Source of the DNA: Leptolyngbya ohadii IS1 | GTDB lineage: Bacteria > Cyanobacteriota > Cyanobacteriia > Elainellales > Elainellaceae | Assembly: GCF_002215035.1 (NCBI RefSeq) | Contig: NZ_NKFP01000006.1 | Span: forward strand, 818,530-882,529 | Direction: 5' to 3' | DNA length: 64,000 nucleotides | Shown here: one piece after another, positions 4,319 to 55,755 of the stretch | How the letters are laid out: each line of letters opens with the position of its first letter | How positions within the stretch are numbered: the first letter of the stretch is position 1 | Translations under genes and position numbers: made by a program | Notes under the pieces: model-generated | What the model was told of the DNA's origin: nothing | What the model saw: only the letters and a program-made list of their open reading frames with translations | Databases searched by the model: none

Positions 4319-4416
4319 AGTTAACCTGTCAATCAAACGTTTAAATTTAATTGAGAGGAATTTATCACACTTTCAGGAGGGAGTGGGGAGGCAGGGAGCA
4401 GGGGAGCAAGAAAATA

Positions 4417-4524
4417 TGAGTAGAGTGCGGGTGAAGTTGTGCGATCGCTGCTATCCCGCTGTCAGCCAAAACAACCCCCACTACATTTACGGCGGTACCT
4501 GGAAAGCCCAAAAACCCCGCTAAT
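4417..4524 (+). pseudogene. Zinc-ribbon protein fragment, C-terminal half joined to start
   Basis: From the ATG inside the left repeat arm the frame reads MSRVRVKLCDRC, then YPAVSQNNPHYIYGGTWKA and stops at CGC-TAA, 35 residues in all. The end looks like the C-terminus of small cyanobacterial zinc-ribbon proteins that, as I recall them, have two CxxC knuckles. Only one CxxC is present here, so the segment between the two knuckles seems to be missing. It pairs with the minus-strand fragment in the right arm. Family recall is from memory and no alignment was run. Confidence 0.45.
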
Positions 4525-4535
4525 CCTACCCCCCA

Positions 4536-4616
4536 TCTACTCATCCACCTTGACGCGGTACAGCACCTCATCCGCCTGCCGACAGCGATCGCACAACTTC
4601 ACCCGCACTCTACTCA
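4536..4616 (-). pseudogene. Zinc-ribbon protein fragment, N-terminal half
   Basis: From the ATG in the right repeat arm the minus strand reads MSRVRVKLCDRC, then RQADEVLYRVKVDE and a TAG stop, 26 residues. This looks like the first CxxC knuckle and following beta strands of the same zinc-ribbon protein whose C-terminal half lies on the plus strand. An intact gene would be expected to join this half to the other through the second CDRC motif. Both pieces are intact-looking codon sequence without decay, which suggests a recent break or a sequence artefact. Confidence 0.45.
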
Positions 4617-4661
4617 TATTTTCTTGCTCCCCTGCTCCCTGCCTCCCCACTCCCCCACCCA

Positions 4662-5744
4662 CTACGAAACCACCGTCGATCCCTGCGGTCTTGCAAAGAT
4701 CATCCGCCCAGCCGAGGTTTGCAGCGAACCCGTGACCACGACTGCCAACTCTCCACCGATATAGCTGCCGCCTTCCTCCACGACAACCATTGTGCCGTCA
4801 TCCAGATAGCCGACGCCCTGGGCGGGTTCCTTGCCCTGCTTGAGAATCTTCAGATCGATCTGATCGCCGGGCAGATAGGCAGGACGCATTGCCTGCGCCA
4901 GATCGTTGATGTTCAAAACCGTGACTTTTTGCAGGCTTGCGACCTTGTTCAGGTTGTAGTCGTTGGTGAGCAGCGTCCCGTTAATGTCCTGTGCCAGACG
5001 CACCAGTTTGGCATCGACTGTGGACACATCATCATAGTCTGCGGGATGAATTACAATCCGCTCCGGGTATGCTTCCTGCATTTGGTTCAGGATGTCTAAG
5101 CCACGCCGTCCCCGTACCCGTTTCTGATCGTTGGAGCCATCGGCAAGCTGCTGAAGTTCTTGCAGGACAAACTTCGGTACGAGCAGTTGACCTTCCAAAA
5201 AGCCAGTTGCCAGGATGTCCTCAATCCGTCCGTCGATAATGCAGCTTGTATCCAGCACTTTGCTCGTTGCAGGCTTCAGCGTTCCCTCTGCCACCAGCAT
5301 CGACTCGACGCTATTGGGATTAATCAGCCGCAGCAGGGTTCGCCCGTGGATATCCGCCAGATTGATGCCAGAAAAGGCAAACATGACGCTTCCCAGAACA
5401 GCTGCCAGGGGTTTGATAAAGGCAAACTCGCGCGGAATCGGCAGCAGAAAGATAGGAGCCAGCATCAGGTTTGCCACCAGCAGCCCCAGCACCAGCCCGA
5501 TCGAGCGACTGAGTAAGCGATCGACTGGCATTTCCCGAATTTGCCGCTCTACTCGGCGGTAGGCAGTCTGAGCAGCAATGCCCAAAGCCAAGCCAATGAG
5601 TGCGCCAAACCCACCCGTGACAAAACTCAGCCCCTCCAGGTTTGTTACCTGTGCCAGGGCGTCATTCGGCAGGAAATCGACGCTATAAAAGCCAATTCCT
5701 GCCCCTGCTATGATGAAAGATATGATGATGATTGCGTCGAGCAT
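4662..5744 (-). CDS. PIN/TRAM domain protein (YacL-like)
   Basis: 360 residues. The first 130 residues contain about four membrane helices (SFIIAGAGIGFYSV; TGGFGALIGLALGIA; LVLGLLVANLMLAPIFLL; PLAAVLGSVMFAFSGI). A PIN nuclease fold follows, with acidic residues in VLDTSCIIDGRI, in VSTVDAKLVRLA and in LLTNDYNLNKVA. A C-terminal TRAM RNA-binding domain begins near QIDLKILKQGKEPAQGVGYL. This is the membrane-anchored PilT/YacL type, presumed to be an RNase, widely conserved in cyanobacteria and Firmicutes. Length matches the family. The end is only 8 bp from the inverted repeat. Confidence 0.9.
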   Translation of the reverse strand: MLDAIIIISFIIAGAGIGFYSVDFLPNDALAQVTNLEGLSFVTGGFGALIGLALGIAAQTAYRRVERQIREMPVDRLLSRSIGLVLGLLVANLMLAPIFLLPIPREFAFIKPLAAVLGSVMFAFSGINLADIHGRTLLRLINPNSVESMLVAEGTLKPATSKVLDTSCIIDGRIEDILATGFLEGQLLVPKFVLQELQQLADGSNDQKRVRGRRGLDILNQMQEAYPERIVIHPADYDDVSTVDAKLVRLAQDINGTLLTNDYNLNKVASLQKVTVLNINDLAQAMRPAYLPGDQIDLKILKQGKEPAQGVGYLDDGTMVVVEEGGSYIGGELAVVVTGSLQTSAGRMIFARPQGSTVVS

Positions 5745-9546: not shown

Positions 9547-9591
9547 CGGATTAAACGGCTTCTCGCTTTGCTGATAAAGAAGCATAGCCTT

Positions 9592-9615
9592 TTCCTGGAA
9601 GCCTTCCTGGAAGCC
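9592..9615. repeat. 12-bp tandem duplication
   Basis: Two perfect copies of TTCCTGGAAGCC, 55 bp upstream of the LOG-family gene. Confidence 0.75.
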
Positions 9616-9669
9616 CAGTGGCTGTAGCTATAATCCGATAAAATAGAGTACTGCTGTTCAAAGGAATAC

Positions 9670-10737
9670 ATGACCCTATCTCCTTCATCGTCCAGCTCAG
9701 AATCCTTTCAGGCAGAGATTAGCGAACTGCTCGCCCAGTTGCCCAAGATGAAGCACGGCGCACTGATTCAGCAGGCACTCATGACCTTGACCCGAATGGC
9801 GGAAGTAGATGTCGATCGCCTCGACTGGAAAATCCTGAACGCCTCATTGCAGGATATGGAGCAGGCGTTTCGCGTTTTTTATCCCCATCGTCACGTTCGT
9901 AAAATCACGATCTTTGGTTCTGCCCGGATCAAGCCCGGTACGCCAGCGTATCAAATGGCGGTGGACTTTGCGAAATGCGTAACGCTGCAAGGCTTTATGG
10001 TGATGACCGGAGGCGGTCCTGGCATCATGCAGGCAGGCAACGAGGGTGCCGGAGAAGGAAATTCCTTTGGGCTAAATATCCGGTTGCCGTTTGAGCAGGG
10101 ATCAAATCCCTACCTGGAGGGCAGCGACAAGCTGGTGAACTTCAAGTATTTCTTTACGCGCAAGCTGTTCTTTCTGCGGGAGACGGATGCGCTGGCGCTG
10201 TTTCCAGGCGGATTTGGCACGCAGGACGAGGCTTACGAATGCCTGACGCTGATGCAAACTGGAAAATCCGATCTGCTGCCGCTGGTGCTGGTGGAACCGC
10301 CGGGAAGCAACTACTGGCGCGGCTGGGAGGCTTACGTGCGCGACCATTTGCTGAAGGATGGCTTAATCAGTCCGGACGATCTGGATTTGTACACTATTAC
10401 CGATCGCGTAGATGTAGCTTGCGAAACGATTTCCAGCTTCTATCGCGTGTTTCACTCCAGTCGCTATGTGGGTGACAAACTGGTGATGCGGCTTAACTCG
10501 GCACTTTCGGAAAACGATGTGGAGTACCTGAACCAGAACTTTAGCGACATTCTGATTTCGGGACGGATTGAGCAAACGAAGGCACTGCCGGAAGAATTGG
10601 GTGGCGATGCGGCGCAGCTCCCCCGTTTAGTGATGCATTACAACCAGCGGGATTTTGGACGGATGTATCAGATGATCCGCGTGATCAATCAGTTGGGTAT
10701 GGATGCCCCCGAAGCCACCCATCCAGAACAGAAGTAG
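9670..10737 (+). CDS. LOG family protein (Rossmann-fold nucleotide-binding)
   Basis: 355 residues. A helical N-terminal region of about 85 residues precedes the LOG core, with KITIFGSARI, the GGGPGIMQAGNEGA motif and the PGGFGTQDEAYE catalytic motif. Small LOG proteins release cytokinin bases from riboside monophosphates; this longer cyanobacterial type also carries both LOG motifs but its substrate is not established. The C-terminal 90 residues are an extension beyond the core. The TAG stop codon is the first base triplet of a 14-bp tandem repeat. Confidence 0.88.
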   Translation: MTLSPSSSSSESFQAEISELLAQLPKMKHGALIQQALMTLTRMAEVDVDRLDWKILNASLQDMEQAFRVFYPHRHVRKITIFGSARIKPGTPAYQMAVDFAKCVTLQGFMVMTGGGPGIMQAGNEGAGEGNSFGLNIRLPFEQGSNPYLEGSDKLVNFKYFFTRKLFFLRETDALALFPGGFGTQDEAYECLTLMQTGKSDLLPLVLVEPPGSNYWRGWEAYVRDHLLKDGLISPDDLDLYTITDRVDVACETISSFYRVFHSSRYVGDKLVMRLNSALSENDVEYLNQNFSDILISGRIEQTKALPEELGGDAAQLPRLVMHYNQRDFGRMYQMIRVINQLGMDAPEATHPEQK

Positions 10738-14204: not shown

Positions 14205-15212
14205 TCAATCTGAGTGATTACAGCGAGAATCGGGCGGGGCACATTCAAACAAATGCAAGCCAAACCGCTGCGATAATTCCTCGCATACCTTAACTCCTCT
14301 CCAGCTATTGCCCCTGGCATCCAGCAACGGCGAAAAGACTGCAATTCCCATGCGATCGGGCACGACGACGATAATGCCACCACTCACCCCGCTTTTGGCA
14401 GGCAGCCCCACCTTGTACGCCCACTCCCCCGCAAAGTTGTACATGCCGCAGGTGTACATGACGCTGAGGATATCCCGCACATAGCAGGCAGACACCGCCT
14501 GAACATTCGTCAGGGGATTAACACCCCGATTTGCCAGCGTTGCCGCCATCACAGACAGATCGCGGCAGTCCACTAAAAGCGAACATTGCTGAAAGTACAG
14601 GTCTAACGCCTCGTCAATCTTTTCGTCGATCATGCCAAAATTTAGCATCAAATGCGCCATTGCCCGGTTGCGGTGTCCGGTTGTCCGCTCCGACATGAAG
14701 GTGGGCATGTCGAGGTAGGGTTCGTGCCCGACGTACCGCTCGAACATTGCCAGCATTCGGTTTAAGCGATCGGTTGCCCCATGCCCCTTAATCAAACTCG
14801 TCGTGGCGATCGCCCCGGCATTCACCATTGGATTATAGGGACGCTTCGACTGCTCATCTAAAACGATCGCATTAAAGGCATCCCCCGTTGGCTCCACGCC
14901 CACCTTTGCCAGCACCCGATCGCGTCCGTGATCCTCCAGCGCCAGTCCGTAAACAAAGACTTTAGAAATTGACTGAATTGTGAATCGCTGCTCGGCATCG
15001 CCCACCGCAAACTGCTGCCCATCCACCGTTGTCACACAAATGCTGAACCAGTCGGGATTCGCCTTTGCCAGTTCAGGAATATAGTCGGCAATTTTGCCCG
15101 ATCGCAATGACTGATGCTGAGTATGCAGCTCTTCGAGAACCGATGGCAGCAAATCTGAAGAGATGGGGGTATCAGCAGGCTGAGGCGATCGAAGATCTGG
15201 CGTCAGAGTCAT
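14205..15212 (-). CDS. glsA: Glutaminase A
   Basis: 335 residues from the ATG at 15212 (a TTG at 15254 would add 14 residues). The serine-dependent beta-lactamase-like fold shows S-x-x-K in [10 protein letters not shown], then [18 protein letters not shown] and a late [17 protein letters not shown], all typical of the glutaminase family. It hydrolyses L-glutamine to L-glutamate and ammonia. It is the first gene of a likely two-gene unit with a PLP decarboxylase, which could use the glutamate produced. Length agrees with the family. Confidence 0.95.
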
Positions 15213-52335: not shown

Positions 52336-53745
52336 TCACGGCGTAACAGGCACAAAATCAAACCCATAGCCCGATCGCCTGCCCGGTTCCACGGTGACAA
52401 GCTGCATAGGCTGAGATCGATCGCCAGAGGACAAAAAGCGCACGGTTCCGGTTGCGCCTTGCAGGGTAAAGTTTGAACTGGCGAGGGTTTGCTGTACACC
52501 CTGTCGCGTAGGGTTTTGCTTTAGTCCTGCGATGAGTACCTCCGCCGCATCGTAAGCCATTGCGGTACGCCAGTTGACATCGCCGCCCCAAAACTGCCGG
52601 GATTCCTGCACAAAGGGCGTATTCGGATTGGCAAGCAGAATCCAGGGCACTGCCACCACCATTTCTTCCGCTGCTGCCCCGCCCACTTCCAGGGTTTTCG
52701 GATCGTACATATCATCCCCTGCCAAAATGGGTAACCGTTTCTGATTCACTGTAATGACCTGCAATGCCAGATTCAGCACACCGCTACTGGGAAACAGCAC
52801 CAGCACCTCCGCCCCCTGTTGGGTTGCCTGCTCGATCGCATTAGAAGCACTGAATCCAGGATTGTTCAGATCAAAATCAGCAACGACTTGCCCTCCATCG
52901 TTTGCTACTGCCGTTGTAAATTCGTCCTTGAGGGAAAGGCTGTACTGGCTGCTGGAGTCAAAAAATATCGCGGCGTTTTTGCGCTGCAAGCGGCTCAGCA
53001 TATCGCGAGAGAGGGTCGTGGCAGAAAATCGATCGCTCGGCACGGTGCGAAACACATAGTCTCCTAAATTGGAAAGCTGCACCGCCGTACTGGTGGGCGA
53101 AATCATGACCAGCCCGTTCTGCTGATAAACTTCCCCAGCAGCCAGGGAAGCCCCGCTGCTAAAGTGCCCGACTACCCCCAGCACAGAGCCATCCTGCACG
53201 AGCGATCGCGCCACATTAGGAGCCAGAGCTGGATTGCTGTCATCGCTGGCAATTTTGACCTTGAGCGGTACGCCGTTAATTCCCCCCGCCCGATTCACTT
53301 CCTCCTGTGCCTGGGCGACTCCCCGCAGAATTTCCAGCGCAGTATTGAGGGAGGTTGCCATCGGTACAGCGACGGCGATCGTGTAGGACTTTTGCTGACC
53401 GATGCGGGCATTGTTAAGGTAAATTAAAGCCTCTGGGTCGTTGCGGTTTGCCTGAAGGCTATCGGTAAAATTCTGGACTGCCTGCTCAAAGTTCCCGGCT
53501 TTCATTGCGTCGATGCCCGCCTGCTTCTGCGGAGAGGCATTGCTGGGGTCTAAAAGCTGTGTTCCCTCGCTGAATCGATCGTCAGTTGCCGCCACCGAAC
53601 CGCTCGACTGGGAATTGGATGCAGTGACACCGGGAACCCCCGATCGAAAGACTCGGTTCAATAAAAGCCATCCCCCACCCCCCAACAGCAGGAGCGTCAG
53701 CAGCAGGGCAGCAATCAGGGCAGGCGTTTCGTTTTTCTGGGACAT
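52336..53745 (-). CDS. ABC transporter substrate-binding protein (branched-chain amino acid type), membrane-anchored
   Basis: 469 residues. A single N-terminal membrane helix (ALIAALLLTLLLLGGGGWLLL) anchors it. A short TPR-like segment follows (KQAGIDAMKAGNFEQAVQNF). From residue 130 it is a periplasmic-binding fold of the LivJ/Leu-Ile-Val type (EILRGVAQAQEEVNRAGGIN; VVGHFSSGASLAAGEVYQQ). It lies just downstream of a Ser/Thr kinase on the same strand, a pairing seen in other cyanobacteria, where it may act as a sensor rather than a transporter. Its first 117 bp-scale region is also found as a second copy inside the scrambled kinase. Confidence 0.88.
   Translation of the reverse strand: MSQKNETPALIAALLLTLLLLGGGGWLLLNRVFRSGVPGVTASNSQSSGSVAATDDRFSEGTQLLDPSNASPQKQAGIDAMKAGNFEQAVQNFTDSLQANRNDPEALIYLNNARIGQQKSYTIAVAVPMATSLNTALEILRGVAQAQEEVNRAGGINGVPLKVKIASDDSNPALAPNVARSLVQDGSVLGVVGHFSSGASLAAGEVYQQNGLVMISPTSTAVQLSNLGDYVFRTVPSDRFSATTLSRDMLSRLQRKNAAIFFDSSSQYSLSLKDEFTTAVANDGGQVVADFDLNNPGFSASNAIEQATQQGAEVLVLFPSSGVLNLALQVITVNQKRLPILAGDDMYDPKTLEVGGAAAEEMVVAVPWILLANPNTPFVQESRQFWGGDVNWRTAMAYDAAEVLIAGLKQNPTRQGVQQTLASSNFTLQGATGTVRFLSSGDRSQPMQLVTVEPGRRSGYGFDFVPVTP
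53589..53705. repeat. 117-bp direct repeat, copy 1 (in binding-protein gene)
   Basis: Identical to 54449-54565 in the same orientation. It covers the membrane helix and following linker of the binding protein. Confidence 0.9.
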
Positions 53746-53825
53746 AGGGTTCTGGAACAGCGGTTCGGGGACTCAGCGACAGCGAAAGACACAAATCAAT
53801 CCCAGATTAGCCACTTTTTGACGAT

Positions 53826-54203
53826 TTAGAGTATTTGGGCAACCAGTTTGTAAATTAACCGAAACACGATCGCCCCAAACAGCACAACCAGTGCGGAAAC
53901 ACCAGCCACAACTAGTACGGTATAGAGTGAATTTCCTCCCATCACAGCCAGCAAACGTTCCAGGATCGTCACATTAAACAGAGCAGACCGCAGAATCGGC
54001 AGGAAGAAAATTGCTGCCGTCGATCCGACCGCAATCAAAAATAAATCAACTCGTTCAATCCAGCGAAGCGACTGAGCCACTGCAACCCCCGCCACAATGC
54101 CCAGCAGGATCAGCCAGAAAATCGGCGTGAGAACCAGCGTTCCCAGCAGGCTCGCCAGCACGATCGCCCCAAACAGCACAACCAGTGCGGAAACACCAGC
54201 CAC
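53826..54203 (-). pseudogene. Detached C-terminal membrane module of the Ser/Thr kinase
   Basis: A 125-residue minus-strand frame with no N-terminal domain. The order of helices (ASLLGTLVLTPIFWLILLG; AQSLRWIERVDLFLIA; final FRLIYKLVAQIL) is what I recall from the C-terminal membrane part of four-Cys cyanobacterial kinases, so it is most likely the end of the kinase gene upstream, now separated from it. It begins and ends with the same 16 residues because a 49-bp sequence is present twice (53865-53913 and 54159-54207). The GTG start is fortuitous. Confidence 0.6.
53865..53913. repeat. 49-bp direct repeat, copy 1
   Basis: Identical to 54159-54207, same orientation; encodes the VAGVSALVVLFGAIV segment of the membrane module on the minus strand. 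Confidence 0.9.
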
Positions 54204-54207
54204 AACT
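54159..54207. repeat. 49-bp direct repeat, copy 2
   Basis: Second copy of 53865-53913. Its right end runs straight into the inverted kinase segment through the shared AGCCACAACT. Confidence 0.9.
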
Positions 54208-54384
54208 CTGGCACTGCTGGAAAGTCTGCTGCCCGTGCTGCAATTCGTTCACGATCGCGGCTCGATCCATCGCGACATCAAACCCTCCAACATCATGCGC
54301 CGCAAGGATGGAACCCTCTTCCTGCTGGACTTTGGCGCAGTGAAACAGGCAACCGCCTCCAATCCCGGACAGGCACAGTCTTCC

Positions 54385-55755
54385 TCAACGGGCATCTACT
54401 CCCAGGGCTTCGCACCGCCGGAACAGATGAAGGGCAATCAGGTCTATCCCGCCACCGAACCGCTCGACTGGGAATTGGATGCAGTGACACCGGGAACCCC
54501 CGATCGAAAGACTCGGTTCAATAAAAGCCATCCCCCACCCCCCAACAGCAGGAGCGTCAGCAGCATTAAGCAGGTGACAGCCAGGGCATAGAGATCGGTG
54601 GCGGGATAGACCTGATTGCCCTTCATCTGTTCCGGCGGTGCGAAGCCCTGGGAGTAGATGCCCGTTGAGGAAGACTGTGCCTGTCCGGGATTGGAGGCGG
54701 TTGCCTGTTTCACTGCGCCAAAGTCCAGCAGGAAGAGGGTTCCATCCTTGCGGCGCATGATGTTGGAGGGTTTGATGTCGCGATGGATCGAGCCGCGATC
54801 GTGAACGAATTGCAGCACGGGCAGCAGACTTTCCAGCAGTGCCAGAGTTGTGGCTGGGGGTGAGCATCAGCATTTTGTCCAGCACTGTGGCGAGACGATC
54901 GCTCACTTTCACATGAGAATGCCAGCTCCACTCATCTTTGTAGGTGTCGTAGAGATCCTGGGGTTGCTCTCTGGTCAGCAGCATTAAGCAGGTGACAGCC
55001 AGGGCATAGAGATCGGTGGCGGGATAGACCTGATTGCCCTTCATCTGTTCCGGCGGTGCGAAGCCCTGGGAGTAGATGCCCGTTGAGGAAGACTGTGCCT
55101 GTCCGGGATTGGAGGCGGTTGCCTGTTTCACTGCGCCAAAGTCCAGCAGGAAGAGGGTTCCATCCTTGCGGCGCATGATGTTGGAGGGTTTGATGTCGCG
55201 ATGGATCGAGCCGCGATCGTGAACGAATTGCAGCACGGGCAGCAGACTTTCCAGCAGTGCCAGAGTTTTGGCTTCCGAGAAGCGTCCCTGCTGTTCGAGT
55301 TCCTGTTCCAGGTTTTGCCCGTCGATGAATTCCTGCACCAGATAGAAAAACTGATCCGGGTCGTTGGCATAGCGGCGCGTCACGGGCAGGGCAAAAAACG
55401 CCAGCAAATCGGGAATCTGCGGATGGGTTCCCAATTCCTCCAGGACTTGACCTTCCCGCTCAAATAAATTCTGGGCAATTTCAAGCTGCTGGGACGTGAG
55501 TTGGGTCGAGGGCTGAAACTGCTTCACCACACAGAACCGCATCGCCGGAGTATAGCGATCGCGTGCCAGATAAGCCGTACCGAAGCCACCCTGTCCTAAG
55601 AGTTTGACGGCAAAGTAGCGACCTGCCAGCAGCAGTTCTAGACCGCAGGCAGTACAGTATTTTTGCGGAATCGTCTTCAGAGTTGCCGAATTGTCAAGAT
55701 CGGCAAAGTGATTCAGCGGACGAGGACAGCTTGGACGGGTACAGTACACTTCCAT
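54385..55755 (-). CDS. Four-Cys Ser/Thr protein kinase, 3' half scrambled
   Basis: The gene starts with a Cys knuckle (C5, C10, C34, C37), then a kinase domain: LLGQGGFGTAY loop, VVKQF Lys, IHRDIKPSN catalytic loop, LLDFGAVKQ and the GFAPPEQM activation segment. Kinase sequence is normal to residue 301 (LDKMLMLTPS). From there the frame enters a second copy of its own catalytic region out of register and continues as nonsense to 54385. The expected C-terminal membrane module lies at 53826-54160, beyond an inverted third copy. Either the gene is broken or the assembly is. It belongs with the binding-protein gene downstream. Confidence 0.8.
   Translation of the reverse strand: MEVYCTRPSCPRPLNHFADLDNSATLKTIPQKYCTACGLELLLAGRYFAVKLLGQGGFGTAYLARDRYTPAMRFCVVKQFQPSTQLTSQQLEIAQNLFEREGQVLEELGTHPQIPDLLAFFALPVTRRYANDPDQFFYLVQEFIDGQNLEQELEQQGRFSEAKTLALLESLLPVLQFVHDRGSIHRDIKPSNIMRRKDGTLFLLDFGAVKQATASNPGQAQSSSTGIYSQGFAPPEQMKGNQVYPATDLYALAVTCLMLLTREQPQDLYDTYKDEWSWHSHVKVSDRLATVLDKMLMLTPSHNSGTAGKSAARAAIRSRSRLDPSRHQTLQHHAPQGWNPLPAGLWRSETGNRLQSRTGTVFLNGHLLPGLRTAGTDEGQSGLSRHRSLCPGCHLLNAADAPAVGGWGMAFIEPSLSIGGSRCHCIQFPVERFGGGIDLIALHLFRRCEALGVDAR
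54449..54565. repeat. 117-bp direct repeat, copy 2
   Basis: Second copy of the binding-protein segment 53589-53705, joined to kinase sequence at both ends through about 10-bp shared words (CCGCCACCGA on the left, GTCAGCAGCA on the right). Confidence 0.9.
54556..54849. repeat. 294-bp direct repeat, copy B of kinase segment
   Basis: Identical to 54974-55267 in the same orientation, offset 418 bp. It repeats the catalytic loop and activation segment of the kinase. Confidence 0.92.
54974..55267. repeat. 294-bp direct repeat, copy A (parental kinase position)
   Basis: The copy that lies in frame in the kinase gene; copies B and C (inverted, 54196-54458) derive from it. Confidence 0.9.

What the first reader, a model, noticed from the sequence alone, without database searches (positions are those of the whole stretch)
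53589..55267. Kinase locus scrambled by four nested duplications with short-homology joins
Four repeat pairs interlock within 1.7 kb: 117-bp direct (53589/54449), 49-bp direct (53865/54159), 294-bp direct (54556/54974) and 263-bp inverted (54196/54595). The joins fall on short shared words: CCGCCACCGA, GTCAGCAGCA, AGCCACAACT (9 of 10) and CACGATCG. Kinase sequence is present three times, once inverted, with a piece of the neighbouring binding-protein gene between. All copies look identical, so the event is recent or artificial. This is the pattern expected of serial template switching, or of amplification or assembly chimeras.
Basis: partly seen in the sequence, partly recalled or inferred. 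Interest (0 to 1): 0.72.

Follow-up and report, generated by a model that had tools for sequence, protein, structure and literature searches.

The report
Kinase gene scrambled by faulty assembly
The scrambled kinase gene is real in the deposited sequence but very probably not in the organism: most of its joins, and those at similar scars elsewhere in this cyanobacterium's published genome, follow a ten-base overlap rule that points to assembly software closing gaps wrongly.

Summary
In detail: all four repeat pairs are exact and in place, plus a second inverted pair. The sister species FACHB-502 has one intact 516-codon kinase. In the window about 0.3 kb of it is missing, replaced by a 699-base patchwork (54159-54857) of nearby pieces.

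The locus is one of many. In 1.66 Mb of this genome (21%) I found 11 interlocked scrambles; 0.8 Mb from three relatives had no exact inverted repeat of 30 bases or more within 3 kb. Of 22 distinct joins with both parents readable, 17 share exactly 10-14 bases (11 of them exactly 10), four share 10-12 with one mismatch, one 9 with one mismatch. Words of 8-9 bases are 12 times commoner there than words of 10-14, yet none is among the 17. Such a step looks like a program's minimum overlap; it does not fit microhomology-mediated replication (2-15 bp) or amplification chimeras (2-21 nt, local ones nearly all inverted; here 10 inverted, 12 direct). Copies are exact inside their matches with few exceptions, and the first 40 residues of PurH are missing from the assembly.

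Best reading: misclosed assembly gaps. No raw reads were available.

The parts
54858..55755 (-). Genuine 5' part of a Ser/Thr protein kinase gene (start codon at 55755), from the N terminus to '...LDKMLMLTP'
   Evidence: Pfam Pkinase PF00069 E 4.1e-33; match to residues 1-310 of the FACHB-502 kinase at 87% identity, which runs about 30 bases into the patchwork
53826..54158 (-). Genuine 3' end of the same kinase gene (hydrophobic C terminus), cut off from the 5' part
   Evidence: 63% identical to residues 405-516 of the FACHB-502 kinase
54159..54857 (.). 699-base patchwork that replaces about 0.3 kb of kinase gene (end of the kinase domain and the Pro-rich linker)
   Evidence: comparison with FACHB-502; the missing stretch is nowhere else in the genome (best E 0.116)
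54159..54207 (+). Patch piece 1: copy of 53865-53913; join word CACGATCG or longer
   Evidence: exact match
54204..54458 (-). Patch piece 2: inverted copy of kinase 55013-55267; join word AGCCA[C/A]AACT at 54198-54207
   Evidence: exact match
54449..54565 (+). Patch piece 3: copy of 53589-53705 from the binding-protein gene; join word CCGCCACCGA at 54449-54458
   Evidence: exact match
54556..54849 (+). Patch piece 4: copy of kinase 54974-55267; join word GTCAGCAGCA at 54556-54565
   Evidence: exact match
54595..54857 (.). Second arm of the 263-bp inverted repeat with 54196-54458; carries the same variant base at the one-mismatch join and ends at the last join (readable part TGGCTGG, 54851-54857)
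52336..53745 (-). Neighbouring gene, periplasmic binding protein (Peripla_BP_6), intact; donor of patch piece 3
   Evidence: 86% identical full-length homologue in FACHB-502

Best explanation
The scramble is an assembly artefact. Where reads did not cover a short stretch of the kinase gene (about 0.3 kb, Pro-rich), the assembler or a gap-closing step glued nearby fragment ends wherever they shared at least about 10 bases (mostly exact, sometimes with one mismatch), on either strand, and the chosen path ran through neighbouring pieces more than once and in both directions. The same error was made at a few dozen other places. The organism itself most likely has one intact kinase like that of FACHB-502. 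Shown: the repeats, the missing piece, the recurrence in this assembly, the step near 10 bases, the similar numbers of direct and inverted joins, the exactness of the copies, the damage to purH. Inferred: that software made the joins, that coverage was missing, and which kind of step did it.
For: (1) 22 distinct joins in 11 loci: 17 exact with lengths 10 (eleven), 11 (three), 12, 13, 14 (one each); four with one mismatch over 10-12; one with one mismatch over 9 (tally by eye). Shared words of 8-9 bases number 4,036 in these loci and none is among the 17 exact joins; 17 against 340 words of 10-14 (Fisher p 9e-20; counts; the cut at 10 was chosen after seeing the data). A threshold-plus-geometric model beats a Poisson by 15 log units. 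(2) Exact repeats of 30 nt or more within 3 kb: this genome 37 direct and 34 inverted in 1.66 Mb; relatives 23 direct and 0 inverted in 0.8 Mb. (3) Of 46 self-matches at the 11 loci 16 have no difference, and in nearly all others the differences lie outside one long exact run. (4) PurH: 12 of 13 genomes match from profile position 1-3; this one starts at 40, and residues 1-40 of the FACHB-502 protein have no match in the assembly except an E 0.54 hit. (5) Zero-spacer palindromes with arms of 510, 169, 158, 77 and 39 bases. (6) Gluing tips on short overlaps is an ordinary assembler step: PMC6736328, passages, gives exact overlap of at least 8 plus one read pair for rnaSPAdes and says smaller thresholds often create false connections.
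Against: That the genomic SPAdes setting is 10 bases with one mismatch is recalled and comes from no call. Joins with one lost parent cannot be measured; the last join of the window locus shows only 7 readable bases (TGGCTGG), and FACHB-502 suggests that the lost parent differed just before them, so it may fall below the floor. One of 22 joins is 9 bases with a mismatch and its mirror image reads 8. Pure tip gluing does not explain second passages through stretches that are continuous elsewhere; a path-finding error must be added. Next to the 510-base palindrome at L127 lies a stretch (9574-9677) about 74% identical to its partner and found nowhere else, which a plain copy does not explain. 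Completeness is listed as 100%.
Confidence: 0.89

Rival explanations
1. In-cell serial template switching (microhomology-mediated break-induced replication or fork stalling and template switching): the replication machinery jumped about five times within 1.7 kb while repairing a break, perhaps after drying and rewetting, and left copied pieces in place of 0.3 kb.
For: Interleaved direct and inverted copies with a deletion are the classic outcome; the joins lie on shared words; E. coli amplification junctions of this class have 2-15 bp and some amplicons hold direct and inverted repeats (PMC2621351, passages).
Against: The floor near 10 bases is not the 2-15 or 2-5 bp spread reported for that class. 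Copies are exact inside their matches with few exceptions, so nearly all events would have no age. purH is broken with no second copy found. A 1,020-bp perfect palindrome without spacer is present; such palindromes are as a rule unstable in bacteria (recalled).
Confidence: 0.06
2. Chimeras made in the test tube by whole-genome amplification (phi29 multiple displacement amplification) and kept by the assembler where coverage was thin.
For: Such chimeras join nearby sequence at 2-21 shared bases, about one junction per 22 kb (PMC1855051, parts 1 and 2 of 4 read).
Against: In that study local joins were 337 inverted to 11 direct; here 10 inverted to 12 direct (binomial p 5e-13). The orientation is read against the other copy, which is certain as source only at the window locus, and at L146 mirror readings of one join disagree. 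No floor at 10 is reported there. Four to five joins within 700 bases would be far above one per 22 kb.
Confidence: 0.03

Closest known systems
False joins from assembly gap closing (tip gluing on short overlaps, as in the SPAdes family)
   Same: Minimum overlap, either strand, local fragments, exact copies, missing native sequence
   Different: The published rnaSPAdes description gives 8 bases exact; here the floor is about 10. The program actually used is unknown to me
Microhomology-mediated break-induced replication / fork stalling and template switching
   Same: Mixed direct and inverted copies with deletion, joins on shared words
   Different: Floor near 10 bases, copies without age, purH broken
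Multiple displacement amplification chimeras
   Same: Local joins on shared words, inverted copies
   Different: Direct joins as common as inverted; several joins per locus; no spread below about 10 bases

Membership tests
Assembly gap-closing error | Join words show a minimum length and a roughly geometric fall-off above it | tested here: met
   17 exact joins: 11 of 10, 3 of 11, 1 each of 12, 13, 14; five more hold one mismatch (four over 10-12 bases, one over 9); joins with a lost parent not measurable, one of them may be 7
Assembly gap-closing error | Same error recurs across the assembly and not in assemblies of relatives | tested here: met
   11 loci in 1.66 Mb; no exact inverted repeat of 30 nt or more within 3 kb in 0.8 Mb of three relatives
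Assembly gap-closing error | Genes that the organism should need are damaged in the assembly | tested here: met
   PurH match starts at profile position 40; 12 of 13 genomes start at 1-3. That a photoautotroph needs the gene is established knowledge, not tested
Assembly gap-closing error | Reads do not support the joins | not testable with these tools
   no raw reads on hand
Microhomology-mediated break-induced replication | Interleaved duplications, inversions and deletions at one place | tested here: met
Microhomology-mediated break-induced replication | Join microhomology variable, 2-15 bp in E. coli, 2-5 bp in human disease | tested here: not met
   floor near 10; literature values from PMC2621351, passages
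MDA chimera | Local joins overwhelmingly inverted (337 of 348) | tested here: not met
   10 of 22 inverted, with the caveat on orientation
Ser/Thr protein kinase (Pfam PF00069) | Profile match over the catalytic domain | tested here: met
   E 4.1e-33, residues 50-300, profile 4-248 of 263; the end of the domain lies at the scramble

The most novel reading that the evidence does not exclude
A soil-crust cyanobacterium carries about fifty recent clusters of serial template switching across its genome, made by a repair process that needs about ten bases of annealing, as a by-product of repairing breaks after drying and rewetting.
Probability: 0.05. Interest if true: 0.85.

Novelty: not a real feature. 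Interest (0 to 1): 0.12.

Why it matters
The assembly appears, by its exact size, to be that of Leptolyngbya ohadii IS1, a soil-crust strain from Nitzana. If the reading is right, roughly 50 loci (26-94 by Poisson limits, scaled from 11 in a non-random 21% of the genome) hold false sequence, so gene-loss or pseudogene claims drawn from it (a headless PurH, a truncated Hsp33, a broken kinase) may be wrong. The test used here, a step in join-word length together with the share of direct joins, separates software joins from template switching without reads and could be tried on other drafts.

Tried and rejected
An intact second copy of the kinase or its missing stretch elsewhere in the genome: none found. 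Old events, by looking for diverged copies: of 46 self-matches of 60 bases or more at the 11 loci, 16 have no difference and in nearly all others the differences lie outside one long exact run. Exceptions: L127 9574-9677, about 74% identical to its partner beyond the 510-base arms (not explained; it has no other copy); L146 5188-5369 / 5536-5717 and its inverted counterpart, 145 exact then 8 differences; L147, one 14-base deletion of a tandem unit; L208 13293-13698, where the differences lie in the spacer. Other diverged repeats in this genome are mostly direct; the relatives also have direct ones. PdxJ as a second broken gene: rejected, its profile match is nearly complete (4-233 of 234), with an inverted partial copy beside it.

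Rows set aside before the join tally: of 26 repeat clusters 12 went into the join analysis. Left out were 12 single pairs without interlocking and two others: L160, a family 74-78% alike, whose overlaps of 12-20 bases I dropped; and L131, an interrupted inverted pair 3-4.4 kb apart. One of the 12 (L127 3900-5200) gave no readable join. Mirror images of one join were merged by eye. Five joins whose parent is itself rearranged, native or lost were set aside: L127 4907, L135 3201, L146 4992 (2 bases), L147 9127, L209 13925 (3 bases). L202 5598 reads as 10 or 16 and the window join at 54198 as 10 with one mismatch (against the native kinase) or 12 exact (against the other patch copy); I used the first of each. 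L209 14354 reads 9 with one mismatch, its mirror at 14913 reads 8. The L146 join holds 9 exact bases within its 12.

Literature searches for the assembly method and for the SPAdes threshold gave nothing direct.
Full report
OBSERVATION. A fifth pair, 54204-54458 inverted against 55013-55267, completes the picture. The kinase gene runs on the minus strand from 55755. Pfam finds a protein kinase domain; downstream lies an intact periplasmic binding protein gene (52336-53745).

WHAT THE LOCUS SHOULD LOOK LIKE. The only other genome of the genus held here is G001; its contig C44 has the same length, 422,511 bases, as the FACHB-502 contig that names. It has one 516-codon kinase in front of the same binding protein gene. 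In the family search, which includes the window's own genome, 34 of 36 genomes have a homologue at E 1e-134 or better, and in 25 of 36 the match is one piece reaching residue 511 or beyond (counted by eye; in the other 11, the window's own genome among them, it ends earlier or is weak). Against FACHB-502 the window keeps residues 1-310 and 405-516. About 308 bases between (57.5% GC, up to 70% in 50-base windows; a Pro-rich linker in the translation) have no match in the own genome better than E 0.116. In their place stand 699 bases, 54159-54857.

PATH OF THE PATCHWORK. Reading the plus strand: native sequence to 54158; copy of 53865-53907 or so (join CACGATCG, or 10 with one mismatch, one parent partly lost); inverted kinase from 55267 down to 55013 (join AGCCA[C/A]AACT, 9 of 10); copy of 53589-53705 (join CCGCCACCGA); copy of kinase 54974-55267 (join GTCAGCAGCA); then a few bases with the same variant base as the one-mismatch join, and a return to native kinase at about 54858. 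Of this last join only TGGCTGG is readable.

THE PATTERN RECURS. I sampled 81 stretches, 1,660,000 bases or 21% of the genome, including the window. Exact repeats of 30 bases or more within 3 kb, overlapping tandem copies excluded: 37 direct and 34 inverted. In 40 control stretches, 800,000 bases from G001, G003 and G008: 23 direct and 0 inverted. Pairs within one locus are not independent. Eleven loci show interlocked copies with readable joins, the window's among them. Scaled to the genome this is about 52 loci, Poisson limits 26-94; the sample was not random.

THE JOINS OBEY A THRESHOLD. Where both parents of a join can be read, the shared word can be measured. After merging mirror images there are 22: 17 exact, of lengths 10 (eleven), 11 (three), 12, 13 and 14; four with one mismatch over 10-12 bases; one with one mismatch over 9. 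Five more were set aside (list in Tried and rejected), and joins with a lost parent are not in the count; the last join of the window locus is one of these and may be shorter than 10. In the same loci there are 3,096 shared words of 8 and 940 of 9 bases, against 233 of 10, 69 of 11, 25 of 12, 8 of 13 and 5 of 14. None of the 17 exact joins used a word of 8 or 9. A smooth preference for longer annealing would not leave an empty class next to the fullest one; a rule 'at least ten' does, and the fall-off above ten is roughly geometric as chance predicts. The cut was noticed in the data before it was tested.

COMPARISON WITH BIOLOGY. For microhomology-mediated replication the ranges given are 2-15 bp in E. 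coli and 2-5 bp in human disease (PMC2621351, passages). For amplification chimeras they are 2-21 nt, with 337 inverted against 11 direct among joins under 10 kb (PMC1855051, first two of four parts read). Here 10 of 22 joins are inverted. The orientation count takes the other copy as source, which is established only for the window locus; there two of the three joins measured are inverted, and the first join, with one parent partly lost, is direct. At L146 two mirror readings of one join disagree in orientation.

COPIES HAVE LITTLE AGE. Of 46 self-matches of 60 bases or more at the 11 loci, 16 have no difference; in nearly all others the differences lie outside one long exact run, that is past the join. 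The exceptions are listed in Tried and rejected. The only one I cannot explain is L127 9574-9677, about 74% identical to its partner outside the 510-base arms, without the codon-position bias of a diverged gene, and without another copy for its last 86 bases. An ongoing process would be expected to leave some copies with scattered substitutions.

AN IMPORTANT GENE IS HIT. At L127 near 4907-4984 (genome place C6:304907-304984) the purine-synthesis gene purH starts at profile position 40 of 511; 12 of 13 genomes searched start at 1-3. A query with residues 1-70 of the FACHB-502 protein finds residues 41-70 there and 41-61 inverted beside them, plus one hit of E 0.54; the latter lies in a 1,109-codon frame that also matches the profile weakly, as similar frames do in most of the relatives (probably carbamoyl-phosphate synthase, recalled). 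A photosynthetic organism on mineral medium is expected to need PurH (established knowledge). Hsp33 is truncated at L135 (profile 2-206 of 297). A perfect palindrome of 2 x 510 bases without spacer lies at the start of pdxJ.

MECHANISM. The best account is gap closing in an assembly graph: fragment ends near a coverage gap are glued on short overlaps on either strand, and the path then revisits pieces. PMC6736328 (passages) describes such gluing in rnaSPAdes with an exact overlap of at least 8 and one read pair, and says that smaller thresholds often create false connections. I recall, without a call, that the genomic SPAdes setting is 10 bases with one mismatch allowed; that would match, but the program used for this genome is unknown to me.

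IDENTITY. The genome has 7,902,459 bases in 8 contigs, exactly the size printed for Leptolyngbya ohadii IS1, biological soil crust, Nitzana, Israel (PMC8619395, table passage). Its desiccation tolerance is recalled.

LIMITS. No reads were seen. The window's genome could not be scanned whole. The merging of mirror joins was done by eye.

Noticed in passing
window 4379-4450 and 4583-4654: Exact 72-bp inverted repeat with a 132-bp spacer; FACHB-502 has a piece of the middle in the opposite orientation to the flanks. Either a small natural inversion or another false join.
   Followed up: partly
L127 4053-4984 (G000:C6:304053-304984): purH lacks its first 40 codons; a 218-bp direct repeat and a 39+39-bp zero-spacer palindrome sit at the break.
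   Followed up: yes
L127 9574-10697: Perfect palindrome of 2 x 510 bases without spacer at the start of pdxJ, continued on one side by a stretch about 74% identical to its partner and otherwise unmatched in the genome. Unexplained.
   Followed up: partly
L135 2540-5314: Hsp33 (hslO) truncated, and a frame that looks like a response regulator (by eye) broken, by a large interlocked scramble with a palindrome.
   Followed up: partly
L103 2882-2954 and 3263-3335: Exact 73-bp direct repeat 381 bases apart inside an open 865-codon frame that looks like MutS2 (family by eye, not searched); may be genuine.
   Followed up: no
L215 17668-18098 and 18485-18915: Duplicated pilin-like gene (recalled from the N-terminal motif), 431 exact bases with differences at the flanks; looks like a natural recent gene duplication.
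   Followed up: no
G000:C6:1204905-1205750 (L058): A diverged kinase homologue with two TAG stops inside, probably a pseudogene.
   Followed up: no
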